Shown one piece after another: positions 1,331 to 54,446 of a stretch of 64,000 nt of DNA. The translations under genes and the position numbers were made by a program. Each line of letters opens with the position of its first letter. The stretch's first letter is position 1. The notes beneath the pieces were generated by a model. That model saw nothing but the letters and a program-made list of their open reading frames with translations, ran no database searches and was not told the DNA's origin. This stretch comes from Burkholderiaceae bacterium (GTDB taxonomy: Bacteria > Pseudomonadota > Gammaproteobacteria > Burkholderiales > Burkholderiaceae_C), in NCBI GenBank assembly GCA_026125795.1, contig JAHCKM010000001.1, forward strand, positions 434,001-498,000, read 5' to 3'.

Positions 1331-1867
1331 ATTGAGCGAGCAAGGCCGCGGCCGGGTGTGCGCCGGCGCTCGGCTGCAGCGGTCGGCCTGCGGCCGACTC
1401 CCCTGCGGTGCTCGATCGCATGGCCCGCGTCGAAACTCGCTCCGCTCACTTCGTTCGCTGTGCTCGAACAGTCGACGCGAGTCAGATGTTGAAGCGCGCG
1501 CTGCGCGCGCGCGGCCATGCGCTCTGCGGTCCTCGGCGCCGCAGATGTCGCTGCCGGCGCACACCCGACCGCGGCTTTGCCGATGCAACGAGGTGTTTGT
1601 CGACCCACACCACGAGAGGTGCTGCGCGGTGGGCGGTACCCGGTGGCGGCGACTTGTGGGGCGGCGAGAAGCGCAGCGACACAAGGGGAAGTCCGGCGCC
1701 GCAGGCGCTGGACCGGCGAGAAGCCATGAAGCAGTGGCCCGTTCAGGGCCGCTGCGAGCGGCATCGCAGCCGCCCTTGTGGCGCGAGCATCGCAGCGCAG
1801 TCGGCCTGCAAGGCCGACCGACCCAGTAGGAGCCGCTACCGGGTACCGCCCACCGCGCCACGCCACT
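1331..1867 (-). repeat. Bipartite inverted-repeat element, copy 1 (reverse orientation)
   Basis: Fills the 553-bp gap between the ABC ATPase and receptor genes. It is the reverse complement of the elements at 9460-10125 and 53836-54446. Module B spans 1341-1580: the outer arm 1341-1369 pairs with the inner arm 1553-1580 with about two mismatches, and both carry a core like GCGCACACCCG. Module A spans 1624-1858: arm 1624-1650 pairs with arm 1832-1858 at 26 of 27 positions around GGGCGGTACCCGG. Between the module B arms sits an Alu-like GC alternation (GCGCGCGCTGCGCGC type) and a conserved stretch with CACTTCGTTCGCTG. Several frames are open through it, but their products are low-complexity Arg/Ala/Ser proteins and I regard the element as non-coding. 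Confidence 0.85.
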
Positions 1868-1877
1868 GATGGAAGAG

Positions 1878-2915
1878 TCACTTCTTCCCAGCAGGCAGGA
1901 TGTTCAACTCAGCCTTGGCCGGCAGATAAGCGTCACTCCACACCGCTGCAGCATCGACCCGCGTCTTGGTCGCGAACGCATCCGACACCTGCGACGCCAT
2001 CAGCGCCAGGCGCCCCGGCACCACCACGCCAAAGCCCTCGGCACGCGCATCGGGGCTCGCCACCACCGAGTCGATCGCCATCCTCAAGCGGCGCTTCTCG
2101 AGGTCGACGTTGATGATGCCGTCGCGCGCCTTCACATAGTCGATCGATGCGTCGGGGTTGGCCATCACCTCCTTCGCGCCCTTCAGGAAAGCCGACAAGA
2201 AGCTCTTCACCGCCTGCGGGTTCTCCTTCATCAGCTTCGGGCTCGCGATGATGACGTTGCCGTACAGCTTGACGCCGTGCTGCGCGTACGGCATCACGAC
2301 GATGTCTTCGGTCCTGACGCCGCGCGCTTCCAGGTTGAGCAGCGACGTGAACGAGAAGCCGGTGATCGCGTCGACCTCGCCACGCGCCAGCATGGTTTCG
2401 CGCAGCGGCGGATCCATGCTGATCCAGCTCACGCTGGCCACGTTGTTGGCCTTGGCAAAGATCGGAAAGCCGCGCCGCCCGGCGTCGAACACCGGCGCGC
2501 CGAGCTTCTTGCCGTTGAGATCGGCCGGGCTCTTGATCGCGTTCTTCTTCAGCGTGAGCACCGCCGCCGGCGTGTTGTTGTAGACCATCATCACCGCCAC
2601 CGGCTTGTTGGCCGCGTCGGGGTTGTTGGCGTGGAACTCCATCAGCGCCGCCAGGTCGGCGAAGCCCATGTCGTAGGCGCCCGAGGCCACGCGCGTCACC
2701 GTGCCGCCCGAGCCGTTGCCGGCATCGATCGTCACGTCGAGGCCCGCGGCCTTGTAGTAGCCCTTGGCGCCCGAGGCGAGAAACAGCGCGGCCGGGCCTT
2801 CAAAACGCCAGTCGAGCTGGAACTTGATCGGCGTCTGTGCCAGCGCCAGCGGCGCGAGCGTGGCGGCAAACAGGCCGAGAACAAGGCGCCGTGCTCGGCA
2901 AAAAACGATGGTCAT
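1878..2915 (-). CDS. NMT1/THI5-like ABC transporter substrate-binding protein
   Basis: Periplasmic receptor for the adjacent ABC importer, 345 residues. A Sec signal peptide (Arg-rich start, hydrophobic core LVLGLFAATLAPLALA, cleavage AQA/AQT near 26-27) is followed by the family opening IKFQLDWRFEGPAALF and the GYYKAAGLDVTIDAGNGSGG region typical of NMT1/SsuA-type receptors. The start ATG at 2915 has an AGGAG box about 6 bp upstream. The gene lies 108 bp downstream of the M20 gene in a urate-degradation locus, which suggests a purine breakdown product or related ureide/pyrimidine as ligand. Family members also bind thiamine precursors, nitrate, sulfonates or riboflavin, so the ligand is inferred. 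Confidence 0.9.
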   Translation of the reverse strand: MTIVFCRARRLVLGLFAATLAPLALAQTPIKFQLDWRFEGPAALFLASGAKGYYKAAGLDVTIDAGNGSGGTVTRVASGAYDMGFADLAALMEFHANNPDAANKPVAVMMVYNNTPAAVLTLKKNAIKSPADLNGKKLGAPVFDAGRRGFPIFAKANNVASVSWISMDPPLRETMLARGEVDAITGFSFTSLLNLEARGVRTEDIVVMPYAQHGVKLYGNVIIASPKLMKENPQAVKSFLSAFLKGAKEVMANPDASIDYVKARDGIINVDLEKRRLRMAIDSVVASPDARAEGFGVVVPGRLALMASQVSDAFATKTRVDAAAVWSDAYLPAKAELNILPAGKK

Positions 2916-3023
2916 GGGAAGGGCTCCTGGGCTTGGGGCAGGTGTGTCGTTGAGATGGCCGGGTGATTTTGCAAGTGCCGTGCGCGATCGACTCTCGGGT
3001 GTTGCACCAAAGCGGGTCGCGAT

Positions 3024-4259
3024 TCAGGCCAACAGATCGGCCACGGTGCGCGCGATCACCTTGGTGGCGCGCCGCAGATCCTCCAGCACCAGATGCTCAT
3101 CGGCGCGCTTGGCGTTGGACTCCAGCACCGTGCGCGGCCCGGCGCCGTAGATGGCGCAAGGGATGCCGAGCGCGCCGTACAGCCGCACGTCGGTGTACAG
3201 CGGCGTGCCCGACACCGGGATCTCCTCGCCGAACAAGGCCTGCGCGTGGCGCTGCAGCGCCGCCACCAGGGCGTGGTTGCTCGGCGAAGGCTTGAGCGGG
3301 TGGGCCAGCAGCAAGCGTTTGATCTCGAGCCGGATGCCGGGGCACGACGCCACGGTTGACGTGATCAGCTCACGCACCTCGGACTCCACCTGCGCGGCGT
3401 CTTCCTCCGGGATCATGCGGCGGTCGAGCTTGAGCATCACCTTGCCGGGGATCACGTTGGTGTGGGTGCCGCCTTCGATGCGGCCCACGTTGAGGTAAGG
3501 GTGCTGGATCCCCGGTGTCTTGGAGAGCCGCTGGCGCAGCACATCGTTGTGCGCATAGAGCGCGGTGAGCAGCTTGTTGGCGGCCTGCAGCGCATCGACG
3601 CCGGTCTCCGGGTAGGCGGCGTGGCTCGCCAGCCCGTGCAGCGTGACCTCGAACTGCAGGCAGCCGTTGTGCGCCACCACCACCTGGTAGCTGAAGCCGG
3701 CGGCAATCAGCACGTCGGGTTGCGTCAGGCCGAGGTTCAGCAGCCAGCCGGGGCCGAGCTCGCCCCCGAACTCCTCGTCGTAGGTGAAGTGCAGCTCCAC
3801 GGCGCCGCGCAGCTTGGCGCTGCTGGCGAGCAGCGCTCGCAATGCATAGGTGTAGGTGGCGAAATCGCTCTTGCTCACCGCCGACGCGCGGCCGTAGAGC
3901 TTGCCGTCGATCACCTCGGCACGGTAGGGATGCGTCGTCCAGCCGTCGCCCGGCGGCACCACGTCGCCGTGCGCGTTGAGCGCGATCGTCGGGCCCTCGC
4001 CGAAGCGGTGGCGCACGATCAGGTTGGTGATCGACTGCAGCCCCGCGGCCTTCACCACCGCGTCGGGCACCTTGTGGCGCTCGGGCGTGAAGCCCATCAT
4101 GCCGAGCATCTCGGCGGTGCGCTCGGCATGCGGCGCGTTGTTGCCGGGCGGCGTGTCGGTGGGCACGCGCACCAGCTCCTGCAGGAAGCGGATCTGCTCT
4201 TCAAAGTGTTCGTCGATCCAGCGGTCGAGCCGGTCGTAGATCTCTGGGTTGGCGCTCAT
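3024..4259 (-). CDS. M20-family amidohydrolase/deacylase (ArgE/DapE type)
   Basis: Cytosolic 411-residue hydrolase of the ArgE/DapE/ACY1 fold. It has the first metal His in NAHGD, the catalytic Glu pair in DEEFGGE, a dimerisation domain, and a C-terminal metal His in ADEHL. The position of the metal-bridging Asp (GRGAxDxK in classic members) reads GRASAVSK here, so the Asp is Val, with a Ser-Asp three residues further on. Its ATG overlaps the TGA of the upstream uraD-allC gene by 4 bp, implying translational coupling. The locus suggests it acts on an acyl-urea, ureidoglycolate-like or N-acyl intermediate of allantoin breakdown. The true substrate cannot be read from the sequence. Confidence 0.88.
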   Translation of the reverse strand: MSANPEIYDRLDRWIDEHFEEQIRFLQELVRVPTDTPPGNNAPHAERTAEMLGMMGFTPERHKVPDAVVKAAGLQSITNLIVRHRFGEGPTIALNAHGDVVPPGDGWTTHPYRAEVIDGKLYGRASAVSKSDFATYTYALRALLASSAKLRGAVELHFTYDEEFGGELGPGWLLNLGLTQPDVLIAAGFSYQVVVAHNGCLQFEVTLHGLASHAAYPETGVDALQAANKLLTALYAHNDVLRQRLSKTPGIQHPYLNVGRIEGGTHTNVIPGKVMLKLDRRMIPEEDAAQVESEVRELITSTVASCPGIRLEIKRLLLAHPLKPSPSNHALVAALQRHAQALFGEEIPVSGTPLYTDVRLYGALGIPCAIYGAGPRTVLESNAKRADEHLVLEDLRRATKVIARTVADLLA

Positions 4260-6115
4260 GCGGTGGCGGTCAGTTGGGTCAGCAGGTGCTGAAAGGCGCG
4301 CACCGACAGCTCGGTGTCGTCGTTGGTGATCGCCTCGAGCGGGTTGTGGCTGATGCCGGCATTGAGCCCGCGCTGGAACAGCATGGCTTGCGGCATCACC
4401 TCGTGCAGCTTCATCGCGTCGTGGCCGGCGCCGCTGGGCAAACGCACGATCGGCAGCCCGAGGGATTGCACCGCGGTCTCCCAGCGCGCCTGCCATTCGG
4501 GCGCGCTCGGTGCGGCGGGTGCGCGGATGGTCTGCTCGGCGGTGCACGAGAGCCCGCGGCGCTGGCAGATCTCGCTCAGCCTGGCCAGCACATCGCGCTC
4601 GCAGGCGTCGCGCACCGCATCGGTGGTGGCGCGGATGTCGAGGCTGAACGTGCAGCGCCCGGGAATCACGTTGATCGAACCGTTGGGCACCTGCAGCATG
4701 CCGACCGTGCCCACCAGGTCGGGCTGGCTCGACGCACGCTGCTCGAGGTAGAGCACCAGCTCGGCGGCCGCTGCCGCGGCATCGCGGCGCATGTCCATCG
4801 GCGTGGTGCCCGCGTGGCTCGCCATGCCGGTGATCTCGCACAGATAACGCACGCTGCCGTTGATCGACGTGACGATGCCCAGCGGCACGTCGAGGCGATT
4901 GAGCACCGGGCCCTGTTCGATGTGCACCTCGACGAAGCCGAGGTAACGCGATGGATCGCGCTTGAGCCGCGTTATGCCGTCGATGTTCAGACCGGCGCGC
5001 TGCATCGCATCGCGCATCACCACGCCGTCGGCGTCGGTCTGGTCGAGCCACCTCGGATCGAAGTCGCCGGTGAGCGCGCCGGAGCCGAGGAACACCGCCT
5101 TGTAGCGCTGGCCTTCCTCCTCGGCAAAGCCGATCACCTCGATGCCGAAAGGCAGGCGACGCCGCGCGCGGTGCAGCTCGCGCACGCAGGCCATTGGCAC
5201 GAAGATGCCGAGCCGTCCGTCGTACTTGCCGCCGTTGCGCACGGTGTCGTAGTGGCTGCCGGTGAGCAGCCTGCGGCTGCTCACCGGCAAGCCGGTCGAA
5301 CTGTGACCCGACCCCACCCCATCCCTCCGCTGTCCAGGGGAGGGCTTGCCGTCAGCATGGAGCTGCGCTTCGTCGATGGCCCAGTACACGCCCACGACGT
5401 TGCCCACCGCGTCGGTGCTCACCTCGTCGAAACCGCATTCGCGCATCCACTGCACCAGTTGCCCGCTGCACGCGCGGTGCGCGTCGGTGAGGTAAGTGAC
5501 CGTCAGCTGGCCGTGCTCCTTGAAGCCCGGGTCGCTGTGCACCGCGAGCTGTTCGGCCCAGTCGAGGATCAGGTTGCCGGCCTCGGGCATGGCACCGAAC
5601 TTGTCATTCAGCCGCAGCTCGGCGATGCGATGGATGTTGCGCAGTGCCTCGGCGAACTCGAACTCCGGGTGGTTGGCCAATCGGCGCGCGAAGGTGGCGA
5701 TGATCTCGCCCTTGCCCAGCCCGGTGCCGCGCGGGCCGCGCACCGCGAGGATGAACGGAAAACCGAACCTGGCGTTGTAGTCGGCGTTGAGCTGCTGGAT
5801 GCGGGCAAACTCCTCGGGCGTGCACTCGGTGAGGCCGGCCTTGCCCTGTTCGTGCGTCGACTCGGCGGTGAGCGTCTTGGCAATCATCGCCTTGCCGGCC
5901 AGCTCGGGGTGGGCGCGGATCAACGCGAGTTGCCGCTCGCGCGGCGCATCGCGCACCACCTCGACCAGCGCGCGCTTGAGCGCGGCCAGCGTTGCAAACG
6001 GCCGCCTGCTCGCCGCGGTTTCCACGATCCACGGCGAGTGCTCGTAGGTGCCGGCGAGCGCCTGGGCGAACTCCGCCGCGCACGCCGCGTTCAGCTGCTG
6101 CAGATCCAACGCCAC
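4256..6115 (-). CDS. uraD-allC: Fusion of OHCU decarboxylase (UraD) and allantoate amidohydrolase (AllC)
   Basis: Bifunctional enzyme of 619 residues. Residues 1-170 are 2-oxo-4-hydroxy-4-carboxy-5-ureidoimidazoline decarboxylase, which makes S-allantoin. Catalytic His69 lies in HPELAGK, and GPRGTGLGKGEI is present. Residues about 175-619 are the M20-type allantoate amidohydrolase, with metal ligands in GSHYDTV (His288), GGKYDG (Asp299), AEEEG (331-335), EVHIEQGP and a late His in SHNPLE. Residues about 253-282 are an extra Gly/Ser/Arg-rich segment just before GSHYDTV, encoded by a palindromic insertion (hairpin 5259-5287). The start is a GTG at 6115, 3 bp after the puuE stop, and the end overlaps the M20 gene. 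UraD-AllC fusions are known in Burkholderiales; the insertion is not a standard part. Confidence 0.93.
   Translation of the reverse strand: MALDLQQLNAACAAEFAQALAGTYEHSPWIVETAASRRPFATLAALKRALVEVVRDAPRERQLALIRAHPELAGKAMIAKTLTAESTHEQGKAGLTECTPEEFARIQQLNADYNARFGFPFILAVRGPRGTGLGKGEIIATFARRLANHPEFEFAEALRNIHRIAELRLNDKFGAMPEAGNLILDWAEQLAVHSDPGFKEHGQLTVTYLTDAHRACSGQLVQWMRECGFDEVSTDAVGNVVGVYWAIDEAQLHADGKPSPGQRRDGVGSGHSSTGLPVSSRRLLTGSHYDTVRNGGKYDGRLGIFVPMACVRELHRARRRLPFGIEVIGFAEEEGQRYKAVFLGSGALTGDFDPRWLDQTDADGVVMRDAMQRAGLNIDGITRLKRDPSRYLGFVEVHIEQGPVLNRLDVPLGIVTSINGSVRYLCEITGMASHAGTTPMDMRRDAAAAAAELVLYLEQRASSQPDLVGTVGMLQVPNGSINVIPGRCTFSLDIRATTDAVRDACERDVLARLSEICQRRGLSCTAEQTIRAPAAPSAPEWQARWETAVQSLGLPIVRLPSGAGHDAMKLHEVMPQAMLFQRGLNAGISHNPLEAITNDDTELSVRAFQHLLTQLTATA
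5259..5287. repeat. Perfect 13-bp hairpin inside uraD-allC
   Basis: Arms CCGGTGAGCAGCC and GGCTGCTCACCGG with a 3-nt loop. One arm encodes the conserved LLTGS of the M20 domain. The other is an inverted copy placed at the end of the extra in-frame segment (about 5278-5360). This looks like an insertion that duplicated adjacent gene sequence in inverse orientation. Confidence 0.75.
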
Positions 6116-6118
6116 CTC

Positions 6119-7905: not shown

Positions 7906-7947
7906 GGCGTGGCTTTCACGTGGCGGCTCGATTGACCTGTGCGCAAG

Positions 7948-7959
7948 AGTGTATACACT
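7948..7959. promoter_or_regulatory. Candidate GntR operator palindrome
   Basis: Perfect 12-bp palindrome AGTGTATACACT in the 117-bp divergent gap between the GntR gene and uraH. A TGTATACA core is typical of FCD-type GntR operators. It lies 43 bp upstream of the regulator start and 64 bp upstream of uraH, well placed to control both promoters. No other copy was noticed in the window. Confidence 0.6.
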
Positions 7960-8022
7960 TTCGCCCGCCGTGGTCCAACCCGGCGGCACCGTTTCCCATC
8001 CACCTTGCGCGGAGCGTACGCC

Positions 8023-8379: not shown

Positions 8380-8466
8380 GGTCGCACAGGGTGTGGGCGT
8401 GAGCCATCGGCGCACGGATCTTGCAAGCGCAAGCCATCGTTGCCCAACCGTTTGCAGGAGCCCGAC

Positions 8467-9417
8467 TTGAAACTTCACCGTCATGTCTTTTGCGCCGCGG
8501 CGCTGGCCTTGGCCACCGCCTCGCATGCCGCCTGGCCCGAGAAACCCGTGCGCATCGTCGTCACGTTCGCGGCCGGCGGCGCGAGCGACATCGTGGCCCG
8601 CGCGATCTCGGAGCCGCTGGCCAAGGCGCTCGGGCAGCCAGTGATCGTCGACAACAAGCCCGGCGCCGGCGGCACCATCGGCGGCGCTGAAGTGGTGCGT
8701 TCCGCGCCCGACGGCTACACGCTGATGCTGTCGAACTCCACCCCGCTGTCGATCGGCCCGTGGACGGTGCCCAAGCTGCCGTACGACCCGATCAAGCAAT
8801 TCACGCACGTGGCGATGCTCGGCGTGGCGCCGGTGCTGATGGCCAACCCGAAGAGCGGTCCCGCCACGGTTAAAGATCTGCCCAAGGCGGCCGCAGTCCC
8901 GGGCTACACCTTCGGCTCCGGCGGCCCGGGGTCGATCGGCCACATCGTCGGCGAGATGGCCAAGAGCGCGATGAAGCTCCAGATGACGCACGTACCGTAT
9001 CGCGGCGGCGCGCCGATGACGACTGACCTGATCGCCGGCCAGATTCCGCTCGGCATCGACGTCATCACGGCGTTCGTGCCGATGGTCAAGTCCGGTCAGA
9101 TCAAGGGCCTGGCCGTCACGACGCGCGAGCGCTCGCCGCTGTTGCCCGAGGTGCCGAGCGTGGTCGAGCTCGGGCTGCCGCAATTGGTGGCGGAGAACTA
9201 CTTCGGCGTGTCGGGACCGGCAGGCTTGCCGAAGGAGGTGACGGACAAGCTCGCCAAGGCGCTGGCCGACATCGTGGCCGATCCGGCCATCGTCAAGCGC
9301 TTTGAAGAGCTCGGCATCACGCCATCCAAGGTGAGCGCCGCGCAGTTCGCCGACTTTGTTGCCAAGCAGATCAACGACTGGGCGCCGGCGATCAAAGCGG
9401 CGGATTTGAAGCCTTGA
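8467..9417 (+). CDS. Bug/TctC-family periplasmic receptor
   Basis: Tripartite-tricarboxylate-type solute receptor of 316 residues. The signal peptide (HRHVFCAAALALATASHA) is followed by WPEKPVRIVVTFAAGGASDIVAR and the typical NKPGAGGTIGGAEVV, APDGYTLM and HVPYRGGAPMTTDLIAGQI motifs. The start is TTG at 8467, set by an AGGAG box 7 bp before it; no ATG fits the signal peptide. There is no TctA or TctB membrane partner in the window, as usual for the expanded Bug receptors of Burkholderiales. Position between uraH and puuD suggests a urate- or ureide-related ligand, but this family binds many carboxylates and amides. Confidence 0.92.
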   Translation: MKLHRHVFCAAALALATASHAAWPEKPVRIVVTFAAGGASDIVARAISEPLAKALGQPVIVDNKPGAGGTIGGAEVVRSAPDGYTLMLSNSTPLSIGPWTVPKLPYDPIKQFTHVAMLGVAPVLMANPKSGPATVKDLPKAAAVPGYTFGSGGPGSIGHIVGEMAKSAMKLQMTHVPYRGGAPMTTDLIAGQIPLGIDVITAFVPMVKSGQIKGLAVTTRERSPLLPEVPSVVELGLPQLVAENYFGVSGPAGLPKEVTDKLAKALADIVADPAIVKRFEELGITPSKVSAAQFADFVAKQINDWAPAIKAADLKP

Positions 9418-9637
9418 GGGTTTTCTAGCTTGATGGTGATTGAAGTCTGCGGAGGTTGGGCGCGGCGCGGCGGGCGGTACCCGGGGTGGGCTCCTGCTGG
9501 GTCGGTCGGCCCTGCGGGCCGACTGCGCTGCGGTGCTCGCGGCACAAGGGCGGCTGCGATGCCGCTCGCAAGCGGCGCTGAACGCGCCGCGCCTTGCAGG
9601 CCGCGCCGGGCCAGGGGGCCCGGCCCCTCGCCAGGCA

Positions 9638-9660
9638 CGAACAGTCCACCGGACTGTTCG
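9638..9660. repeat. Perfect 10-bp hairpin nested in repeat copy 2
   Basis: Arms CGAACAGTCC and GGACTGTTCG around ACC. Copy 1 lacks it at the matching place. Copy 3 has a related CAGTCC/GGACTG hairpin, but in module B (54303-54330), so the unit appears to move independently of the large element. Confidence 0.8.
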
Positions 9661-9744
9661 TGTCCGGGCTCGGCTTCATGGCTTCTCGCCGGTCCGGCCA
9701 CTGCGGGTCCGGACTCCCCCTTGTGCCGCTGCGCTTTTGGCTCC

Positions 9745-9773
9745 GGGTCATATGCGCTTCGCGCATATGACCC
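9745..9773. repeat. Perfect 13-bp hairpin nested in repeat copy 2
   Basis: Arms GGGTCATATGCGC and GCGCATATGACCC around TTC. It is more AT-rich than its surroundings and absent from the matching place in copies 1 and 3. Confidence 0.8.
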
Positions 9774-10160
9774 TACGCCGCAACTTCGTTGTCGCCGCCG
9801 CACAAGTCGCCCATCCCGGATAACGCCCACCGCGCAGAGACGCTCGCGGGTTTCCTCGACGAAAACCTCGCTGATGCTGGCCAAGCCGTGGTCGGGTGTG
9901 CGTCGGCAGCGACATTGTGCGGCGCTGAGCACCGCACAGCGCATGGCCGCGCGCGCGCAGCGCGCGCTTCAACCTCTGACTCGCGACGACTGTTCGACCA
10001 CAGCGAACGAAGTGAGCGGCGGGAGTGTCGACGCGGGCCATGCGATCGAGGAGCGCAAGGGAGTCGGCCCTTCAGGGCCGACCGCTGCACACGAGCGCCG
10101 GCGCATACCCGGCCGCGGCTTTGCCCTGCTCGGCCGCCGCAGGGCTGCTGCCTGAACGCC

Positions 10161-11357
10161 ATGGACGCCTACCTCCTCGACTGGATCAACCTGCTGCTGC
10201 GCTTTGCGCACGTGATCACCGGCATCGCGTGGATCGGTGCGTCGTTCTACTTCGTCTTTCTCGATCTGAGCCTCAAGCCGCCGACCGACCCGGTGCTGAA
10301 AGACAAGGGCGTCGACGGCGAGCTGTGGGCCGTGCACGGCGGCGGGTTCTACAACCCGCAGAAGTATCTGGTGGCGCCCAAGTCGCTGCCCGAGCACCTG
10401 CACTGGTTCATCTGGGAGAGCTACACCACCTGGCTCACCGGATTTGCGCTGTTCACCGTGCTGTACCTGTTCAACGCCAGCACGTTCCTGGTCGACAGGA
10501 ACGTGTTCGACTGGTCGGCGCAGGCCGCGGTGGTGGCGGCGCTGGCGTTCCTGGTTGCGGGCTGGATCGTCTACGACGCGATCTGCCGGCTGTTCGGCCA
10601 ACGCCAGCGCGGCGACCTGATCGTCGGCGTGCTGGTGTTCGTCTACGTCGTCGCGGCGAGCTGGCTCGCGTGCCGGCTGTTTGCCGGCCGCGCCGCGTTC
10701 CTGATCGTCGGCGCGATGCTCGCCACCGCGATGAGCGCCAACGTGCTGTTCTGGATCATTCCGGGGCAGCGCAAGGTGATCGCGCAGATGCGTGCCGGCC
10801 AGCCGGTGGATCCGGTGCATGGCCAGCGCGGCAAGCAGCGCAGCCTGCACAACACCTACTTCACGCTGCCGGTGCTGGTGACGATGATCAGCAACCACTA
10901 CGGCTGGCTGTATCAGGGTGCGCACAGCTGGCTGGTGCTGGTGCTGTTGATGCTGGCGGCGGCGCTGGTGCGCCACTCATTCGTCGCGCGGCACAAGGCG
11001 CTGGTGTTGCAGCAACCGGTGCCCTGGGGCTATGCGGCGGCGGGCGTGCTGCTGATGCTCGCGGTGGGTGTGGCGCTGAAGCCCGCGCCGCCTGCGGCGG
11101 CCGCCGCGTCACGGCCGGCGCAGCTGGCCGATGTGAAGGCGATCGTCGAGCAGCGCTGCGTCTCGTGCCACAACGCCCAGGTGCAGCAGAAGAACGTGGC
11201 GCTGCACACCGACGCGCTGATCCGCCAGCATGCGCAGGCGATGTACCAGCAGGTGGTGGTGCTCAAGCTGATGCCGCTGGCCAACGCCACGCAGATGACC
11301 GACGACGAGCGCCTGGTCGTCAAGCGCTGGTTCGACGCCGGCGCGCGTCCTGACTGA
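10161..11357 (+). CDS. puuD: Membrane urate oxidase/hydroxylase with C-terminal cytochrome c (PuuD)
   Basis: Oxidises urate to 5-hydroxyisourate at the inner membrane and passes electrons to its own haem rather than directly to oxygen. The 398 residues include eight or so membrane helices (for example 12-36, 91-110, 121-146, 152-173, 178-200 and 255-270) forming the urate-oxidase N domain, with conserved HGGGFYNPQKYLVAP and HLHWFIWESYTTW. One more helix near 288-307 leads to a C-terminal c-type haem domain with CVSCH at 333-337. The ATG at 10161 fits the family start. It lies 35 bp after repeat copy 2, so the repeat is its immediate upstream region. It feeds UraH and UraD encoded to its left. 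Confidence 0.94.
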   Translation: MDAYLLDWINLLLRFAHVITGIAWIGASFYFVFLDLSLKPPTDPVLKDKGVDGELWAVHGGGFYNPQKYLVAPKSLPEHLHWFIWESYTTWLTGFALFTVLYLFNASTFLVDRNVFDWSAQAAVVAALAFLVAGWIVYDAICRLFGQRQRGDLIVGVLVFVYVVAASWLACRLFAGRAAFLIVGAMLATAMSANVLFWIIPGQRKVIAQMRAGQPVDPVHGQRGKQRSLHNTYFTLPVLVTMISNHYGWLYQGAHSWLVLVLLMLAAALVRHSFVARHKALVLQQPVPWGYAAAGVLLMLAVGVALKPAPPAAAAASRPAQLADVKAIVEQRCVSCHNAQVQQKNVALHTDALIRQHAQAMYQQVVVLKLMPLANATQMTDDERLVVKRWFDAGARPD

Positions 11358-11364
11358 CCGCGCC

Positions 11365-11817: not shown

Positions 11818-11938
11818 CGTCGACGCTCCGGGCGGGCATGCGGCACCCCGCATGCCGAAGCGACATGCTGCGCCGGCCGCGATAACCCGCTTGTCGGGCG
11901 GGTCGTGTTTGGGCTGTAGGACGGCCCCGATAAACGTA

Positions 11939-12412: not shown

Positions 12413-12462
12413 CGGTTTCTCCCGGTGTGGCGTGCCCCCTATCATCCGCCGAGGGACAGCGC

Positions 12463-41185: not shown

Positions 41186-41194
41186 GCCCGCGTG

Positions 41195-43740: not shown

Positions 43741-43803
43741 GCGGCCGATTCGCCTGCGCCGCGCTGTGCGGCGGCCGCGGCTGCTTGCCCAGCGATGCGG
43801 CGG

Positions 43804-44895: not shown

Positions 44896-44971
44896 GCACG
44901 AACCTCCCGCAAGGCACACACTGTACCTGCGGCACCCCGTAGTATCGGCACCGTCGAGAGGAGCCCGTTGA

Positions 44972-46294
<1,323 letters not shown>

Positions 46295-46344
46295 ATGCCG
46301 CGCGCAGCGCGCCGGCCACAACACAGGCCTGAGGAGAAGGACCG

Positions 46345-47259: not shown

Positions 47260-47261
47260 CG

Positions 47262-50200
47262 TCAGACCGCACGGGCCACGCCGTCGTCCACACCGTGCCG
47301 GTCTGCATCATCGGTTGACAGCCACGGCTTCAGTTGCTGCAGCCATTGGTCGACCGGCACCGGGCGGCCGTGCAGCCAGCCCTGTTGCGCATCGCATCCG
47401 TGCGCGTCGAGGAACTGCGCCTGCTGCGCCGTCTCCACGCCCTCGGCCACCACGTGCAGTCCGAGGTGGGCGCCCATCGCCAGCACCGATTGCACGATGC
47501 CCACCGACGCGCCGTCGCCCGGCAGCCCGGCGACGAAGCTGCGGTCGATCTTGATCTCGTACAGTGGCAGCCGGCGCAGATAGCCGAGGCTGGAGAAGCC
47601 GGTGCCGAAATCGTCGATCGAGAAGCGCACGCCCAGCGCGGTCAGCGCGTGCATGCGCTGCACCGCGGCATCGATGCGCGAGATCAGCAGGTTCTCGGTG
47701 ATCTCCAGGATCAGCAGCTCCGGGCGCGCGCCGCTCGATGCCAGCGCGTGGCGCACGTGCGCCACGAAGTCGGCGTGCTGGAACTGTGCCGGGCTGATGT
47801 TGATCGACAGCGGCAGGTGCACACCGGCGCTTGCCAGGCGTGCGAGCACGCGGCAGCCTTCCTGAAGCACCCAGCCGCCCAGCTCGACGATGCTGCCGGT
47901 GGACTCGGCCAGCGCAATGAACTGGTCCGGCGGCACCCAGCCGCGCTGCGGATGCAGCCAGCGCAGCAGCGCTTCGGCGCCGGCGGGACGGCGTTGCGCA
48001 TCGGTCTGCAGCTGCAGGTGCAGACGCAGCTGCTCGGTGCCGATCGCGGCGCGCAGGTCGCTCTCGAGCGCGAGCCCGTCCTGAAAGCCCGACATCATGC
48101 CGCTCTCGAACAGCGACACGCCGCCGCGCTCGTGCGCCTTGGCGCGGCGCAGCGCGAGCTGCGCTTCGCGCAGCACGTCCATCGCGTCGAGCGTGGCCGG
48201 GTCGATCAAGCTCAGGCCGGCGCTGGCCTGCAGCGTCCAGGGGCCGCCCGGGAGCGCGAACGGCACGCCGATGGCGTGGAGCAGCTTGCGGGCGGCGTTG
48301 CGTGCGGCCTGCATCGCTTGCGCGTGTTCGCGCCCGCAGGCGTCGATCACGATGACGAACTCGTCGCTGCCGGTGCGTGCGATGGTGTCCTCGCAGCGCA
48401 GCAGGCCGCTGCAACGGCGCGCCACTTCGCGCAGCAGCTCGTCGCCCGCCTGCGGTCCGCGTGCCACGTTGACGTTCTTGAAGTGGTCGATGTCGACGCA
48501 GATCACGGCGCCGTACTGGCCGTTGCGATGCACGCGCGCCAGCGCGCGATCGAGCCGCTCGTTGAGCAGGCGGCGATCCGGCAGGCCGGTCAGCGGGTCG
48601 TGCATCGCCGCGCTCGCCGGCGCGCCCGGCCGTTGCGCACCCGGCGCGTGCGCCGGCGCGGGCCCGACGGCCGCATCGTCGGCGGCGATCACGAAGCCGC
48701 CCTTGCCGGACTGCTTGACGGCATACATCGCCGCGTCGGCGGCGCGGATCAGTGTGGTGGCATCGGTCGCATGCTGCGGATAGCTCGCCACGCCGACGCT
48801 GGCCCCGACCTGGACGAACTGTCCGTCGGGCAGCTGGAACGGCGCCTTGAAGGCCCTGATCAGGTCGCTCGCCAGCGAACGCACCACGCCATCGCTGGCG
48901 TGCAGCCCTTCCAGCAACACCACCAGCTCGTCGCCGCCGAGCCGGCCGACGATATCGTCGTGGCGTTTGAACAGCGAGCGCAGCCGCTGCGCCGCCTCGA
49001 TCAGCACCGCGTCGCCGGCGGCATGGCCCCAGCGGTCGTTGACCGCCTTGAAGCCGTCGAGATCGATGAACATCAGCGTGACCGAGCCGTTGCCGTGGCG
49101 CGCGGCGTCCACGCGCTGATCGAGCGACGCCTCGATGAAGGCGCGGCTTTTCAAACCGGTGAGCGCATCGTGCTCGGCGCGATGCAGCGCCATGCTCTCG
49201 GCGCGCTTGCGCTGCGAGATGTCGTACAGCACGCCTTCGATCTGGCCCGCGTCGGGTCCAGACCCTGAGCGTACCGACACCAGGCAGTGCGCCCACAGCA
49301 CGGCGCCGTCGACGCGGCGCAGCTCCAGATCGGCTGCCACCGGCTGGCCGCTCGCGCGCGCCGACTCGATCACGTCGAACAGCTGCCGCGGGTGGCAGAA
49401 CGCGCGCGCGGCAAAGTCTTCTGGCGGCGCGCTGTTTGCCTGGCCCGCGGCCGCGCCGAGCAGCCGGCCCAGCGCCGGGTTGCCGTTGATCAGCCGGCCC
49501 TGCGCCGACATGATGAAGATGCCCGCGCTGGTGGAGTCAAAGATGCCGCGGTAGCGCGCCTCCATCGCTGCGATCTCGGCGCGCATCGCACGTTCGCGAT
49601 CGAGCGCGCGCTGCTGCAGCTCCAACAACCGGTTGGCGGCGTGGGTCACCGTGCCGACCTCGTCGCGTTCGTGTGCGGCCAGCAGCTCGATCCGGTCGGG
49701 TGTGCCGGGCTGAAGACGCGACAGGGCGGTCGCCAGGTTGTGCATCGGGCGCGACAGCAGCCGCAGCGCCAGTGCGTTGAACACCAACAGCACGCCGGCC
49801 AGCAGCACGATCAGCGCGATCACCAGCGTGAGGGCCTGCTTGCGCGCCTCTGCCGACAGCTTGGCGTCGTCGATCCAGACACGCAGCCGGCCCACCGACT
49901 CATGGGCGTCGAACGGCGAGCGCAGCAAGTGGTCGATCGACGCGGGCTGCGCGGGCGCGTCGGCCGTGGACGCGGAGGGCGTCGGCTCGCGCAGCGGCGC
50001 CGACACCAGCGCCTCGCCCGTGGGGCCCACCACCGCGGCGTGCGAGACGTGCGGGTGGCGTGCCAGACCATCGGTCAGCTCGTGCAGCAGCACCTTGTCG
50101 TTGGCATAGGCGCCGATCGCGCAGGTCTTGTCGATCGAGCCGATCAGCGCCGCGATCGAAGCACGGCCGCTTTCGTGCAGGTGGGCCTGTGCCACGCGGT

Positions 50201-50291
50201 AGACCGCCAGCGCGGCCACGGCGCCCAGAAACAGCGCCGTCCAGAACACGGCCGCCACGAAGCGCCGGTGCAGACTGCGGTTCGAGCTCAT
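47262..50291 (-). CDS. Membrane c-di-GMP enzyme: sensor, HAMP, PAS, two GGDEF domains, EAL
   Basis: 1009 residues. Helix 11-31, periplasmic CHASE8-like sensor (32-150), helix about 153-176, HAMP (177-230), PAS (240-365), GGDEF-1 (366-535, GGDEL 452-456), GGDEF-2 (560-730, GSDEF 641-645), EAL (740-1000). The EAL keeps EALLRW (773-778), SINISPAQF, EITEN, IDDFGTGFSS, EIKIDRSF and AEGVET, so phosphodiesterase activity is expected. GGDEF-1 is near-canonical and GGDEF-2 has Ser in the second position. Having two GGDEF domains is rare. It is last in a porin/binding-protein/GGDEF-EAL operon. Confidence 0.92.
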   Translation of the reverse strand: MSSNRSLHRRFVAAVFWTALFLGAVAALAVYRVAQAHLHESGRASIAALIGSIDKTCAIGAYANDKVLLHELTDGLARHPHVSHAAVVGPTGEALVSAPLREPTPSASTADAPAQPASIDHLLRSPFDAHESVGRLRVWIDDAKLSAEARKQALTLVIALIVLLAGVLLVFNALALRLLSRPMHNLATALSRLQPGTPDRIELLAAHERDEVGTVTHAANRLLELQQRALDRERAMRAEIAAMEARYRGIFDSTSAGIFIMSAQGRLINGNPALGRLLGAAAGQANSAPPEDFAARAFCHPRQLFDVIESARASGQPVAADLELRRVDGAVLWAHCLVSVRSGSGPDAGQIEGVLYDISQRKRAESMALHRAEHDALTGLKSRAFIEASLDQRVDAARHGNGSVTLMFIDLDGFKAVNDRWGHAAGDAVLIEAAQRLRSLFKRHDDIVGRLGGDELVVLLEGLHASDGVVRSLASDLIRAFKAPFQLPDGQFVQVGASVGVASYPQHATDATTLIRAADAAMYAVKQSGKGGFVIAADDAAVGPAPAHAPGAQRPGAPASAAMHDPLTGLPDRRLLNERLDRALARVHRNGQYGAVICVDIDHFKNVNVARGPQAGDELLREVARRCSGLLRCEDTIARTGSDEFVIVIDACGREHAQAMQAARNAARKLLHAIGVPFALPGGPWTLQASAGLSLIDPATLDAMDVLREAQLALRRAKAHERGGVSLFESGMMSGFQDGLALESDLRAAIGTEQLRLHLQLQTDAQRRPAGAEALLRWLHPQRGWVPPDQFIALAESTGSIVELGGWVLQEGCRVLARLASAGVHLPLSINISPAQFQHADFVAHVRHALASSGARPELLILEITENLLISRIDAAVQRMHALTALGVRFSIDDFGTGFSSLGYLRRLPLYEIKIDRSFVAGLPGDGASVGIVQSVLAMGAHLGLHVVAEGVETAQQAQFLDAHGCDAQQGWLHGRPVPVDQWLQQLKPWLSTDDADRHGVDDGVARAV

Positions 50292-50303
50292 GGGTGAACA
50301 GCG

Positions 50304-50753
50304 CTAGGGCAGCCGCAGCACGACGCGGACCGCGGAGTCGTGGGGTTCGTGCGCGAGGTAGCCGAGCGCGCTCGGATCCTGGCGCAGGCGCTGGATCAGC
50401 GCGCGCTCGTCGTCAACCGGTTGCGGCGGCTGCACCTGGCCGGTGAAGTGCAGGCGCGCCCAGTAGCTATTGATGCGCGCCAGGTCCATTCCGGTGAGCG
50501 CGCGGTAGAAGGCTTCGCGCAACGGACTGTCGCGTGGCTGATCGAGCGGCCGCGCCACCTCCCCGTTGGGAAACGAACGCGTGCGACCGGTGTACAGCGC
50601 CAGCACTTCCTTCTGGGTCATTGCCTGCACCGGGCTCTGCGCCGAGACCACGACGACCATCGCGTCGGCCGCGTGCGCCGCGGCCGCGCAGCACCCCAGT
50701 GCCAGCAGCGCCAGCGCGCGCAGTCGACGCCCGGATCCGAACAGGGCGCGCAT
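50304..50753 (-). CDS. Small PstS-like periplasmic binding protein
   Basis: 149 residues with signal peptide (LRALALLALGCCAAAAHA). AMVVVVSAQSPVQAMTQKEVLALYTGRTRSFPNGEVARPLDQPRDSPLREAFYRALTGMDLARINSYWARLHFTGQVQPP is the small half-size 'phosphate ABC transporter substrate-binding-like' family. Such proteins are encoded with a beta-barrel and a sensor protein rather than with ABC transporters. The start codon ATG at 50753 overlaps the porin stop (TGATG); a GTG 12 bp upstream is possible. I suggest it presents a ligand to the periplasmic domain of the GGDEF-EAL protein 12 bp downstream. Confidence 0.8.
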   Translation of the reverse strand: MRALFGSGRRLRALALLALGCCAAAAHAADAMVVVVSAQSPVQAMTQKEVLALYTGRTRSFPNGEVARPLDQPRDSPLREAFYRALTGMDLARINSYWARLHFTGQVQPPQPVDDERALIQRLRQDPSALGYLAHEPHDSAVRVVLRLP

Positions 50754-52087
50754 CAATGCCCCCACGTGAGGTCGACCAACACGGTCAGCACCGTGGCGGT
50801 GGCCGGCCGCGCATCGCCATGGCGCCAGGCGCCCGCGCCATTGGCATGCACGTGGATGCGATCGAGCTGCAGCTTGAGGGCGGTGCGGGCCGTCGCGTCC
50901 CAGCGCAACCCGCCGGCAAGCGAGCGCTGGTCATAGCGGCCACCGTTGGCGGCGTCGGTGGCACCTTGCGCCAGCATCTGTGCCTGCTGTCCCAACGCCG
51001 GGCCCAGCACCGGCGTGACGAGTGTGGCGAGATCGGGCGCGGCTTGCGCGTCGTGCTTGGGGATGCTCCGGCTTGCCAGCCCATACACCGTGACCGAACG
51101 GATGCGGTAGCCGATGCCGACATAGCCCCGCAGCCCTGACGCGGTGCTGCCGTCGATGCGCACGCGGCTGCCTTCGGCGTGCAGCGACCAGGGTCCCTGC
51201 TCGTACTGGACGCCAAGGCCCAGGTAGCGACCGACGCCGCGCGTCCACAGGCCGCGCTGCAGCGCGTCGACCTCGACGCCGAGACCGGGCACGGGCAGGG
51301 CGCCCAGTTGATCGAGCCCGCCGCGCAGCTGCAGCATCGACGGCGTGGAGTTCACCGACGTGCGGGCGCGAAAGTAGCTGCCCTTGACCAGCAGGCCGTC
51401 AGCCTCGCGGCTCAGCGTGAGCGCGATGGCGTCGCGGCCGGTCAGCACGAGTTCCTCGTCGCTGGCCAGCGCGCCCAGGTTGGCGGAGAAGCGCCCGGCG
51501 GCGAAGCGGCCGCGCCACTCGGCACCGGCCCAACTCCAATGGCGAGACACGTCGCCGCCATCGAACGATGTCACCGGGATGAAGCCGTAGAACTCCACCG
51601 GGGGCCGGGCCCACGGCAGCGCGAAGCCGATGCTGCGCGAGTCGGCGAACAGGAACAGGTCGGGGCTGGTGCGGCCGAGGCGCAGGCTGACTTCGGGTGT
51701 CGGCCGGTGCGTGATGTAGGCCCACTCCAGCGACTTCTCCGCCGGCGTGCCATAGGGGCGGTCGCGCAGCACTGCCTGCAGCGCGCCCTCCCAACGCGCA
51801 CCGCCGTTCCAGTTGAGCTGCAGGCCGGCGCGTGAATCGACCCGCGCGCTGACGTCGCTTTCCGCGCCTTTTTCACCCTGGTCGCGCGCGAAACCCCAAT
51901 CGTGGCCACCGGACTTCGAGGCCAGGCCGAGCGTGGCGAAGCCGCTCAGGGCCCACGGCGACTCGGCCTCGGCCGCCGCATCTGCGGATGTCGACAGCGC
52001 CAGCGCCAACACGAGTGCGGGCGTCCACGCGGCCGATCGTCGGAACCGCGGGCCCCGATGGCGCGTGACTTCTGGCTGGGCTTTCAT
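50753..52087 (-). CDS. Outer-membrane beta-barrel (porin-like) protein
   Basis: 444 residues. A long signal region (AAWTPALVLALALSTSADA) is followed by alternating hydrophobic strands with aromatic girdles (WALSGFATLGLASKSGG; GLQLNWNGGARWEGALQAVLRDRPYG; WAYITHRPTPEVSLRLGR; FYGFIPVTSFDGG) and a short final strand VLVDLTWGH. The layout is that of the porin found beside PstS-like and GGDEF/histidine-kinase proteins. The ATG at 52087 is chosen, with one 15 bp upstream also possible. It is first in the three-gene operon and would let the signal ligand enter the periplasm. Confidence 0.78.
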   Translation of the reverse strand: MKAQPEVTRHRGPRFRRSAAWTPALVLALALSTSADAAAEAESPWALSGFATLGLASKSGGHDWGFARDQGEKGAESDVSARVDSRAGLQLNWNGGARWEGALQAVLRDRPYGTPAEKSLEWAYITHRPTPEVSLRLGRTSPDLFLFADSRSIGFALPWARPPVEFYGFIPVTSFDGGDVSRHWSWAGAEWRGRFAAGRFSANLGALASDEELVLTGRDAIALTLSREADGLLVKGSYFRARTSVNSTPSMLQLRGGLDQLGALPVPGLGVEVDALQRGLWTRGVGRYLGLGVQYEQGPWSLHAEGSRVRIDGSTASGLRGYVGIGYRIRSVTVYGLASRSIPKHDAQAAPDLATLVTPVLGPALGQQAQMLAQGATDAANGGRYDQRSLAGGLRWDATARTALKLQLDRIHVHANGAGAWRHGDARPATATVLTVLVDLTWGH

Positions 52088-52259
52088 GCTGCGGGTTCGC
52101 ACTCGGTCGGCTCGCGACCTCGCGTTCTATATCGGAGGTGCGCGAGGAAACCTGAGCGCGCACGCTGGCGTGCGTGACGCGCGACCGAAGTCGATCGCCA
52201 ACCCAGCACGACTTGCGCTGCATCAAAGAGCAGCGCGCCGCGAGCGGCCGGGTGCGGTC

Positions 52260-53138
52260 TCAGCTCTCCAGCATGTGCATGGCCTGCACCAGGCTGCGCC
52301 GCATGCGCGACAGCGCGCTGGCCAGCATGCCGATCTCATCGCGGCCGCGTGCCGCGAAGTCCGGCGCATCGACCTCGCCCAGGCTGATGCGGTCGGCCAG
52401 CGCCGAGATCCGGGTGATGGGGCGGATGAACATCCACCACAGCACGCCGTTCATCGTCAGCGCGATGGCCACCAGCACGGCGAGCAGCGAGCCCATGAAG
52501 ACACGAAACGTGGTTTCGGCGCGCTGCAGCACGAAGGTCTCGGGGATCTGCACGATCTGCGCGCCGATGATCTCGTTGACCTTCCAGCCGAAGCCGTTGG
52601 CCGACCCGTACTTGGCGATCATCGTCGCCGGCGCCACCTCGGCGGTGTCGTGGCAGCGCAGGCAGGCGCCGCCGGCGCGCAGCGGCTTGGCCACGTAGAG
52701 CATGCGGCCGTTGGGCGTGTCGCGCTCGCCGAACAGCGGCGCCTCGGCGACGCCGTTGCGAAACGCATTGACGATGTCGCTCTCCCAGTCGACCGCGCGG
52801 TTCACCGGGTTGGTGGGGTTGAGCGTGGCCTCGCGGTACTGGAAGTTCTTGTAGTCCGGGTTGGCCTCGCGCAGGTGCTTGAGCATCTCGATGGCCGAAT
52901 ACGCCGACACCATCTCGGGGCGGAACTCGTACTTGATCTGCGTTTCGAGCAGTGGTGCGATGTTCCGGCTGGTGTAGGTGCGCACCGCCAGTGCGCTTTC
53001 GATCAGCAGCTTGGCGTTCTCGCGGATCTCCTCGCGCGCATTGCGCTGCAGCAGGTCGCGCGACACCAGCGCAGTGGCCGCGGTGCCGAGCGCGAACAGG
53101 ATGAACAGCACGAGGTTGAACTTGGCGAGCAGCTTCAT
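52260..53138 (-). CDS. Haem-binding Tll0287-like sensor with HAMP and no output domain
   Basis: 292 residues. N-terminal helix (LLAKFNLVLFILFALGTAATALV). The periplasmic DUF3365/Tll0287-like domain (about 28-200) carries a c-type haem motif CLRCHD. A second helix (VFMGSLLAVLVAIALTMNGVLWWMFI) leads to a HAMP domain (RPITRISALADRISLGEVDAPDFAARGRDEIGMLASALSRMRRSLVQAM), and the protein ends at LES with no kinase, GGDEF or chemoreceptor domain. It may be a redox or NO/CO sensor that signals through another protein. It sits divergent from the ECF sigma gene with 100 bp between. Confidence 0.85.
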   Translation of the reverse strand: MKLLAKFNLVLFILFALGTAATALVSRDLLQRNAREEIRENAKLLIESALAVRTYTSRNIAPLLETQIKYEFRPEMVSAYSAIEMLKHLREANPDYKNFQYREATLNPTNPVNRAVDWESDIVNAFRNGVAEAPLFGERDTPNGRMLYVAKPLRAGGACLRCHDTAEVAPATMIAKYGSANGFGWKVNEIIGAQIVQIPETFVLQRAETTFRVFMGSLLAVLVAIALTMNGVLWWMFIRPITRISALADRISLGEVDAPDFAARGRDEIGMLASALSRMRRSLVQAMHMLES

Positions 53139-53238
53139 GGCAGATGTCCTCTGATCGACTTAGGGGTGAAAACGCAAGACGGCCGCAGAACCTGACATCG
53201 GGCGGCCGCACAATCGACCCGATGACAAGGAGTGCGGC

Positions 53239-53805
53239 GTGGTCGTGAGCGAGCGCGTCACCGTGCTGCTGGCGCGCGTCACGGCGGGCGACCGCGCGGC
53301 GCGCGACGCGCTGTTCGCCGCGGTCTACCCCGAGCTGCGGCGCCTGGCGCACGCGCGCCTGTACGGCGGCGGCCGCAACACCGTGCTCGACACCACCGCG
53401 CTGGTGCACGAGTCGTACCTGCGCCTGGTGCAGACCGGCGAGCTCTCTTTCGACGACCGGCGCGCTTTCTTCGGCTACGCATCGCGCGTGATGCGCTCGG
53501 TGATCGTCGACAGCGCGCGGGCACGCCTGGCCGAACGCCGGGGCGGCGACGCGCGCCCAGTCACGCTGGCCGACGAGCCGGCCGCAGCGCTGCTGCAGCA
53601 GGACGAGCACATCATGCAGGTGCACGAGGCGCTGCAGCAGCTGGAGCAGGCCGATGCGCGCGCCGCGCAGATGGTGGAGATGCGCTACCTCGGCGGCTAC
53701 AGCGACAAGGAGATCGCCGAGACGCTGGACGTGACCGAGCGCACCGTGCAGCGCGATTGGGAGAAGGCGAGGATGCTGCTGCGCGCTCTCCTGGGCGAGA
53801 ACTGA
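53239..53805 (+). CDS. ECF-type sigma factor (TIGR02999 group)
   Basis: 188 residues, sigma-70 region 2 (AAVYPELRRLAHARLYGGGRNTVLDTTALVHESYLRLV, FFGYASRVMRSVIVDSARARLAERRGG) and region 4 (MVEMRYLGGYSDKEIAETLDVTERTVQRDWEKARMLLRALL). This group is linked to serine/threonine kinases, and one follows downstream. The GTG at 53239 has an AAGGAG box 7 bp upstream. Repeat copy 3 (53836-54446) separates it from the kinase gene, which in such pairs normally follows closely. Confidence 0.9.
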   Translation: MVVSERVTVLLARVTAGDRAARDALFAAVYPELRRLAHARLYGGGRNTVLDTTALVHESYLRLVQTGELSFDDRRAFFGYASRVMRSVIVDSARARLAERRGGDARPVTLADEPAAALLQQDEHIMQVHEALQQLEQADARAAQMVEMRYLGGYSDKEIAETLDVTERTVQRDWEKARMLLRALLGEN

Positions 53806-53835
53806 GATGAATGTCGAGCGGTCACTTCGGGGTGT

Positions 53836-54446
53836 GGCGCGGCGCGGCGGGCGGTACCCGGGGTGGGCTCCCACTGGGTCGGTCGGCCCGGGCCGGCTGC
53901 GCTGCGGTGCTCCCATCACAAGGGCGGCTGCGATGCCGCTCGCAAGCGGCCCTGCACGGGTCGCTGCCTCATGGCTTCTCGCCGGTCCGTCGCCTGCGGC
54001 GCCGGACTCCCCCTCTCTCCACTGCGCTCCTCGCCGCCCCACAAGTCGCCCACCCCGGGTACCGCCCACCGCGCAGAGACACTCGTGGTGCTCCTCGACG
54101 AAAACCTCGGTGGTGCGGCAAAGCCGTGGTCGGGTGTGCGCCGGCAGCGACATCTGCGGCGCCGAGGACCGCAGAGCGCATGGCCGCGCGCGCGCAGCGC
54201 GCGCTTCAACCTCTGACTCGCGTCGACTGTTCGACCATAGCGAACGCAGTGAGCGGCGGGAGTTTCGACGCGGGCCATGCGATCGAGGGAGTGAGCCCGG
54301 ACGTGGGACAGTCCCTGCGGACTGTCCCACGCCTGGCGAACGCCCATGCGCTTGCAAGCGCAAGGGCACGCAGGGGAGTCGGCCGCAGGCCGGCCGCCGC
54401 AGCCGAGCGCCGGCGCATACCCGGCCGCGGCTTTGCTCGCTCAATG
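53836..54446 (+). repeat. Bipartite inverted-repeat element, copy 3
   Basis: Fills the 690-bp gap between the sigma and kinase genes. Module A: arms 53848-53867 (CGGGCGGTACCCGGGGTGGG) and 54047-54066. Module B: arms 54121-54148 and 54407-54435. The right end shares TTGCTCGCTCAAT with the left end of copy 1, and the left end shares GTGGCGCGGCG with the other ends. A perfect hairpin (54303-54330) and a smaller GCGCTTGCAAGCGC palindrome near 54350 sit inside module B, absent from the other copies. Open frames across it encode the same Arg/Ala/Ser-rich strings seen in the other copies, and I do not call a gene. Confidence 0.85.
54303..54330. repeat. Perfect 12-bp hairpin nested in repeat copy 3
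   Basis: Arms GTGGGACAGTCC and GGACTGTCCCAC around CTGC. The CAGTCC/GGACTG core is shared with the hairpin at 9638-9660 in copy 2, at a different place in the large element. Confidence 0.8.

What the first reader, a model, noticed from the sequence alone, without database searches (positions are those of the whole stretch)
1331..54446. A family of 540-670 bp intergenic elements, each two modules bounded by their own inverted repeats
Seen in sequence: copies at 1331-1867 (reverse), 9460-10125 and 53836-54446 share long stretches and the same order. In each, module A is bounded by inverted arms around GGGCGGTACCCGG, and module B by arms around GCGCACACCCG. The arms of copy 1 match 26 of 27 and about 26 of 28. 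Three copies in 64 kb implies dozens in the genome. The structure fits a non-autonomous mobile or structural-RNA element more than a gene, and it interrupts operons (ABC importer, sigma-kinase pair). No transposase is encoded. Inference: a MITE-like or BIME-like bipartite element, perhaps acting as RNA processing or promoter unit.
Basis: seen in the sequence. Interest (0 to 1): 0.75.

Follow-up and report, generated by a model that had tools for sequence, protein, structure and literature searches.

The report
Structured repeat threaded through bacterial operons
A two-part, strongly folded repeat found dozens of times in one bacterial genome sits between genes of the same operon and usually keeps an open reading frame running from the stop of the gene before it to the start of the gene after it, although the encoded amino acids do not seem to matter.

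Summary
In detail: three real copies, each of two modules bounded by its own inverted repeat, and at least 46 copies in the genome. The main feature was missed. One sense frame is stop-free across 39 of 43 testable copies. It typically starts on an ATG/GTG overlapping or touching the upstream gene's stop and ends overlapping or touching the downstream start. Decoy frames do not: 26/37 against 1 and 0 at the left, 27/41 against 2 and 10 at the right (cruder callers 14/2/6 and 15/2/4). The frame survives inserts and compensating indels, yet shows no third-position bias, and the product gives no confident fold. Both modules show compensatory base pairing. Empty orthologous sites show insertion at gene junctions. 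Best reading: a dispersed, non-autonomous, RNA-structured repeat tolerated in operons because ribosomes can run through it; a new variant of the MITE/BOX kind. Translation, mobility and polarity are inferred. The direction-specific frame was seen in this genus only; 14 loci from other genera show no such bias.

The parts
1331..1867 (-). Copy 1 of the element (modules A and B, no extra hairpin)
1624..1858 (-). Copy 1, module A (inverted arms, multibranched fold)
   Evidence: L022:1714-1948 of alignment A1 converted to window coordinates
1340..1581 (-). Copy 1, module B
   Evidence: L022:1430-1671 of alignment A2 converted
1321..1881 (-). Copy 1 through-ORF, GTG start overlapping the upstream stop by 4 nt (GTGA), stop overlapping the ABC ATPase ATG by 4 nt (ATGA), 186 aa
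1878..2915 (-). Upstream gene, NMT1/THI5-like binding protein
506..1324 (-). Downstream gene, ABC transporter ATPase
9460..10125 (+). Copy 2 of the element, with two extra hairpins in module A
9465..9835 (+). Copy 2, module A
   Evidence: read by the same end motifs
9631..9667 (+). Extra hairpin inside copy 2 module A; the same hairpin occurs elsewhere in the genome
9745..9773 (+). Second extra hairpin inside copy 2 module A (13-nt perfect arms)
9879..10124 (+). Copy 2, module B
   Evidence: read
9433..10155 (+). Copy 2 through-ORF (ATG, 240 aa); looser junctions, start +15 from the upstream stop, stop 5 nt before the next ATG
8440..9417 (+). Upstream gene, TctC family receptor
10161..11357 (+). 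Downstream gene, urate oxidase N-terminal domain protein
53836..54446 (+). Copy 3 of the element, with an extra hairpin unit in module B
53842..54074 (+). Copy 3, module A
   Evidence: L001:1507-1739 of alignment A1 converted
54117..54436 (+). Copy 3, module B including the inserted hairpin unit at about 54287-54368
53807..54499 (+). Copy 3 through-ORF, start 1 nt after the upstream stop (TGA-G-ATG), stop overlapping the kinase ATG by 4 nt (ATGA), 230 aa
53239..53805 (+). Upstream gene, ECF sigma factor
54496..57105 (+). Downstream gene, protein kinase domain protein

Best explanation
A dispersed, non-autonomous, modular repeat whose transcript folds into two strongly paired domains. It has entered operons at or beside stop/start junctions. 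Ribosomes that end the upstream gene restart on a start codon overlapping or touching that stop, read through the element in one open frame, and end on a stop overlapping or touching the next gene's start. The element is kept because it is transparent to translation: selection holds the frame open and in phase, not the peptide. Shown by sequence: copy number, structure with compensatory pairs, orientation with the operon, frame conservation, codon overlaps, empty sites. Inferred: that it is translated, that a closed frame would cause polarity, and that it moved by transposition.
For: Stop-free frame 0 in 39 of 43 copies against 7 and 14 in the other sense frames and 6, 4, 20 in antisense; same length mod 3 in 37 of 43 although lengths run from 290 to 650 nt. 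Left junction 26/37 against 1 and 0; frame 0 reaches the right edge in 33/37 against 8 and 13. Right junction 27/41 against 2 and 10. 21 of 23 copies stop-free against 12.0 expected when the same substitutions are scattered at random. No codon-position bias on the 185 columns read in one phase; model pLDDT 50, pTM 0.12. Compensatory pairs. 32 loci from named MAGs: median open length 639 nt against 184 and 107. Empty sites with overlapping genes: GTGA in G003 for copy 1, ATGA in L153.
Against: No expression data. Copies are related, so counts are not independent events. The size of the right-junction effect depends on how the downstream gene is called: 14/2/6 of 37, 15/2/4 of 42, 27/2/10 of 41. 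Four of 43 copies have a closed frame, three of them (L012, L025, L064) in a codirectional setting. In 10 codirectional loci of other genera a spanning frame exists in gene direction in 7 and in the opposite direction in 8, so no bias there. Target-site duplication is only weakly supported (p 0.03). Gene directions rest on codon-position GC, not annotation.
Confidence: 0.62

Rival explanations
1. Active regulator: ribosomes crossing the element keep the RNA unfolded; when upstream translation is weak it folds and triggers cleavage or Rho termination, so the element sets the ratio of the two genes.
For: Strong conserved pairing in both modules in addition to the open frame; insertions shared between species at the same place.
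Against: No common function among the neighbours seen; no expression data; structure could be kept for mobility instead; wobble bias expected for sense RNA is seen in module B only.
Confidence: 0.2
2. Passive selfish repeat: the open frame was inherited from a master copy and has not yet decayed; junction overlaps come from the insertion process.
For: Repeat family with many copies; a 10-bp stop/start junction identical at both ends in L010; copies about 8% from the consensus (41 of about 512).
Against: 21 of 23 stop-free against 12.0 expected; single-base indels offset by others; start codons lie in dissimilar flanks.
Confidence: 0.1
3. A real protein-coding gene family with a functional product.
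For: Start, stop and a 185-240 aa frame in most copies; ends of the peptide such as ARRGGRYP and GRGFARS recur.
Against: No third-position bias and much of the element read in different phases in different copies; no family match above cut-off in Pfam and NCBIfam (2 ORFs each) or in PHROGs and PDB (1 ORF); no confident fold.
Confidence: 0.05
4. Pure structural RNA or DNA element; the open frame is chance in a 70% GC genome.
For: Very stable folds and compensatory changes.
Against: Frame, phase and junction results against decoy frames of the same sequences.
Confidence: 0.03

Closest known systems
BOX elements of Streptococcus pneumoniae (PMC3049150; abstract and passages seen)
   Same: Modular intergenic repeat, can exceed 500 bp, folded, large copies encode expressed ORFs, in some cases with the stop codon beyond the element
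   Different: In the passages seen, ORFs occur on both strands and no overlap of start and stop with both neighbouring genes is described; sequence relation was not compared here
Rickettsia palindromic elements (review PMC10969869; passages seen)
   Same: Repeats that keep a frame open so that translation passes through
   Different: About 150 bp, many inserted inside genes in frame with a conserved peptide; here the element lies between genes and the peptide is not conserved
Chunjie MITE of Geobacter uraniireducens (same review; passage and reference title seen only, the paper is not held)
   Same: Repeat in an operon, by its title without disturbing operon structure
   Different: 178-235 bp with conserved terminal inverted repeats and direct repeats
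ERIC, Correia elements and REP/BIMEs (same review and search listings)
   Same: Dispersed palindromic intergenic repeats that affect mRNA of operons
   Different: No through-frame coupling described in what I saw; no Y1 transposase relative found in this genome

Membership tests
MITE | Terminal inverted repeats of the whole unit | tested here: not met
   Each module has its own arms, but the outer left end (GCGCGGCGCGG) and right end (GGCTTTGCTCGCTCG) are not inverted copies
MITE | Target-site duplication | tested here: inconclusive
   Permutation p 0.03 over 44 copies; clear only in single cases such as L010 and L063
MITE | Ends shared with an autonomous transposon of the genome | not tested
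   No search for a partner transposase other than Y1_Tnp was made
MITE | Dispersed copies with empty orthologous sites | tested here: met
   At least 46 copies; empty sites
REP/BIME with RAYT | REP-associated Y1 transposase in the genome | tested here: not met
   PF01797: 0 matches at E <= 0.001, 2 candidates scored; control rings in 5 of 14 genomes
Rickettsia palindromic element | Insertion inside genes, in frame | tested here: not met
   37 of 46 lie between two codirectional genes
BOX element | boxA-boxB-boxC sequence modules | not tested
   BOX sequences were not compared
Protein-coding gene family | Open frame with start and stop kept across copies | tested here: met
Protein-coding gene family | Amino acid sequence under selection | tested here: not met
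   Minor-base frequency by codon position 0.075, 0.074, 0.063 on 185 columns
Known Rfam RNA | Match to a curated covariance model | tested here: not met
   0 matches at gathering score in the whole window; only sub-threshold hits on copy 3

The most novel reading that the evidence does not exclude
A class of mobile translational couplers: a repeat that inserts at the stop/start junction of two operon genes, takes over the downstream gene's start codon for its own frame, re-creates a coupled start at its far end, and uses its ribosome-dependent RNA fold to tune the ratio of the two genes. Selection acts on a reading frame whose protein product is irrelevant.
Probability: 0.22. Interest if true: 0.87.

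Novelty: new variant of a known kind. Interest (0 to 1): 0.72.

Why it matters
If right, it shows how a 0.5-kb folded repeat can spread through operons without breaking them: by being readable by the ribosome. It is a natural case where an open frame is conserved while its amino acids are not, a warning for gene annotation, since such ORFs would be called hypothetical proteins. It also offers dozens of natural replicates for testing translational coupling and polarity.

Tried and rejected
Rfam: nothing at gathering score and only sub-threshold hits when relaxed. Protein family and PDB searches with one or two of the ORFs: nothing above cut-off; one sub-threshold Pfam hit, RTC_insert E 0.1. IMG/VR viral contigs, one exact pattern: 0. 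PLSDB plasmids, copy 1: no match. RAYT as mobiliser: none found. Target-site duplication as a general rule: weak. Wobble bias as proof of sense-RNA selection: 79 G-U against 30 A-C cells, but by column only in module B (21 vs 4; module A 13 vs 19). A riboswitch at the empty urate-oxidase loci (recalled resemblance): no Rfam match at gathering score. Extension of the frame rule to other genera: not supported. Of 14 fetched loci, 10 have codirectional flanks; a spanning frame exists in gene direction in 7 and in the opposite direction in 8. Searches of the paper library listed no title or abstract describing a repeat with this property; two of them returned no paper, and most subscription journals are not in that library. 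Three scripts for gene direction and starts disagree in detail. In one search, five of seven 'left gene reversed' calls score low (L003, L005, L015, L061, L076), and the right-hand calls of L019 and L070:6190 are weak and contradicted.

Full report
WHAT WAS CHECKED. The three copies exist at the stated coordinates. In each, two modules are bounded by their own inverted arms: in copy 1 the module B arms pair in 26 of 28 positions, the module A arms around GGGCGGTACCCGG in 26 of 27 (read). The window lies in an unnamed 6.57-Mb genome in 6 contigs, G000; the window is 70% GC. The exact 13-mer occurs 65 times there against 0 for the reversed control. I extracted 46 distinct copies and 3 fragments; from 53 hit clusters I dropped 3 repeats of the same place and 1 cluster that was the far arm of another copy. 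The core is about 534 nt: module A, a short linker, module B. Larger copies contain extra hairpins at a few spots, and shorter ones have internal deletions. One 44-nt hairpin also occurs at places outside the extracted copies.

STRUCTURE. RNAalifold gives 78 pairs for module A (30 copies) and 77 for module B (22 copies), copies with large inserts or deletions left out. On those pairs 97.9% and 99.3% of cells are standard pairs. Cells changed on both sides number 98 against a shuffled mean of 32, and 55 against 15; sliding the partner leaves 2-16 and 0-3. The structure was derived from the same alignments, so the slid controls flatter it; the shuffles ignore relatedness. Copy 1 folds with z -9.0 in sense and -9.9 in antisense, so stability does not tell the strand. 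G-U cells exceed A-C cells 79 to 30, but by column only in module B (21 vs 4; module A 13 vs 19).

THE READING FRAME. With GCG CGG CGC GGC GGG CGG TAC CCG as codons, the frame is stop-free in 39 of 43 copies; L019 and L067 lacked an anchor for this script and L073 is too short. The other sense frames are stop-free in 7 and 14 of 43, antisense frames in 6, 4 and 20. The anchor-to-anchor length has the same remainder mod 3 in 37 of 43, although it ranges from 290 to 650 nt. Single-base indels in stems are offset by others elsewhere. The four closed copies are L012, L025, L064 and L070:6190. L012 restarts at a GTGA in the linker and then reads open through module B; in L070:6190 the frame closes 13 nt before the right edge. 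L007 is called antisense to both neighbours and has no start; L019 is antisense to its upstream gene.

JUNCTIONS. By codon-position GC, 37 of 46 copies lie between two genes pointing the same way as the element, and the right-hand gene is called in sense in 44 of 46, two of those calls being weak and contradicted; an earlier script gave 32 and 41. In one search the start lies at -4 in 11, -1 in 3, +1 in 8 and +2 in 2 of 34 copies with a called upstream gene, and the stop at -4 in 17, +1 in 6 and +2 in 3 of 41 with a called downstream gene. Against decoy frames of the same sequences: left start at -4..+2 in 26 of 37 against 1 and 0, and frame 0 reaching the right edge in 33 against 8 and 13; right stop at -4..+2 of a downstream start in 27 of 41 against 2 and 10, 15, 2 and 4 of 42 with a cruder caller, and 14, 2 and 6 of 37 inside. 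In the window, copy 1 has GTGA and ATGA overlaps, copy 3 TGA-G-ATG and ATGA, copy 2 looser spacing of +15 and +5. Neighbours: NMT1-type binding protein and ABC ATPase; TctC receptor and urate oxidase; ECF sigma factor and protein kinase.

IS IT A PROTEIN GENE? In 23 copies of about 512 nt, 185 of 521 alignment columns are read in the same phase by at least 90% of copies (the rest include gap columns); on those 185, minor-base frequency by codon position is 0.075, 0.074 and 0.063. When each copy's own substitutions are scattered at random, 12.0 of 23 copies would stay stop-free; 21 do. The peptide is 56% Ala, Arg, Gly and Pro (23 ORFs, one present twice). Two ORFs had no Pfam or NCBIfam match above cut-off, and one had none in PHROGs or PDB. 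An AlphaFold2 model from 20 aligned ORFs has pLDDT 50 and pTM 0.12. So the frame is kept, not the product's sequence.

OTHER GENOMES AND EMPTY SITES. An exact pattern scan of the GTDB species genomes found 32 loci in 5 MAGs labelled Ideonella sp. (2), Burkholderiaceae (2) and Burkholderiales (1). In these loci the open length from the anchor has median 639 nt in frame 0 against 184 and 107, and is at least 300 nt in 29, 10 and 13 of 32; five loci run off their end in some frame and count as open there. Some insertions are shared between genomes at the same place, e.g. L013 with L110, L112 and L162. Others are absent. At the copy 1 locus G003 has the two genes overlapping as GTGA and G002 has them 5 nt apart; in G000 the corresponding GTG opens the element frame and the ATPase starts at an ATG overlapping the element's stop. 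At a livM-livG-like locus (names recalled) L153 has ATGA where L030 and L177 carry the element. At the copy 2 locus G001 has a module-A-only copy, G002 has a 113-nt gap without it, and in G003 and G005 no element is found just upstream of the urate oxidase gene. A 10-bp stop/start junction identical at both ends in L010 suggests duplication on insertion, but over 44 copies the signal is weak (p 0.03). In the wider family 60 of 299 genomes (37 of 141 genera) have related sequence at E <= 1e-12, two candidates scored per genome, most listed hits lying in the module B half. Of 14 such loci, 12 carry an additional inverted piece of module B. Ten have codirectional flanks: a spanning frame exists in gene direction in 7 and in the opposite direction in 8. 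The frame rule is therefore shown for this genus only.

READING. The element is best seen as an old, non-autonomous, folded repeat made tolerable to operons by being translatable; whether it also tunes expression is open. Closest in print, from passages read, are pneumococcal BOX elements, some encoding expressed ORFs (PMC3049150), and Rickettsia palindromic elements inside genes (PMC10969869). The listings showed no report of a repeat coupled by overlap to both neighbours, in a library that lacks most subscription journals.

Noticed in passing
L140 (G002), L144 (G003), L141 (G005), just upstream of the urate oxidase start: Where the element is absent, the leader holds a similar small hairpin (CTCAC...GTGAG type; in G003 CTCA...TGAG). 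It recalls a purine-type riboswitch from memory only; Rfam gave no match at gathering score.
   Followed up: partly
window 9631-9667 and 54297-54336; ten hits outside the copies: A separate small hairpin repeat inserts inside the element, in either direction, and also lives outside it.
   Followed up: partly
L012, linker between modules: A copy with a shifted frame restarts at an internal GTGA and then stays open: a two-ORF relay.
   Followed up: partly
L029, left end: Tandem duplication of about 39 bp of the left end, still in frame.
   Followed up: no
Left flanks of L012, L017, L067, L158, L170, L177: A degenerate extra leader (E.GPRAV-like) before the ARRGG codons recurs in several genomes, hinting that the true left end reaches further out.
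   Followed up: no
L192-L199 and L202-L205: In other genera an additional inverted piece of module B accompanies the element (12 of 14 loci), so module B may move on its own.
   Followed up: partly
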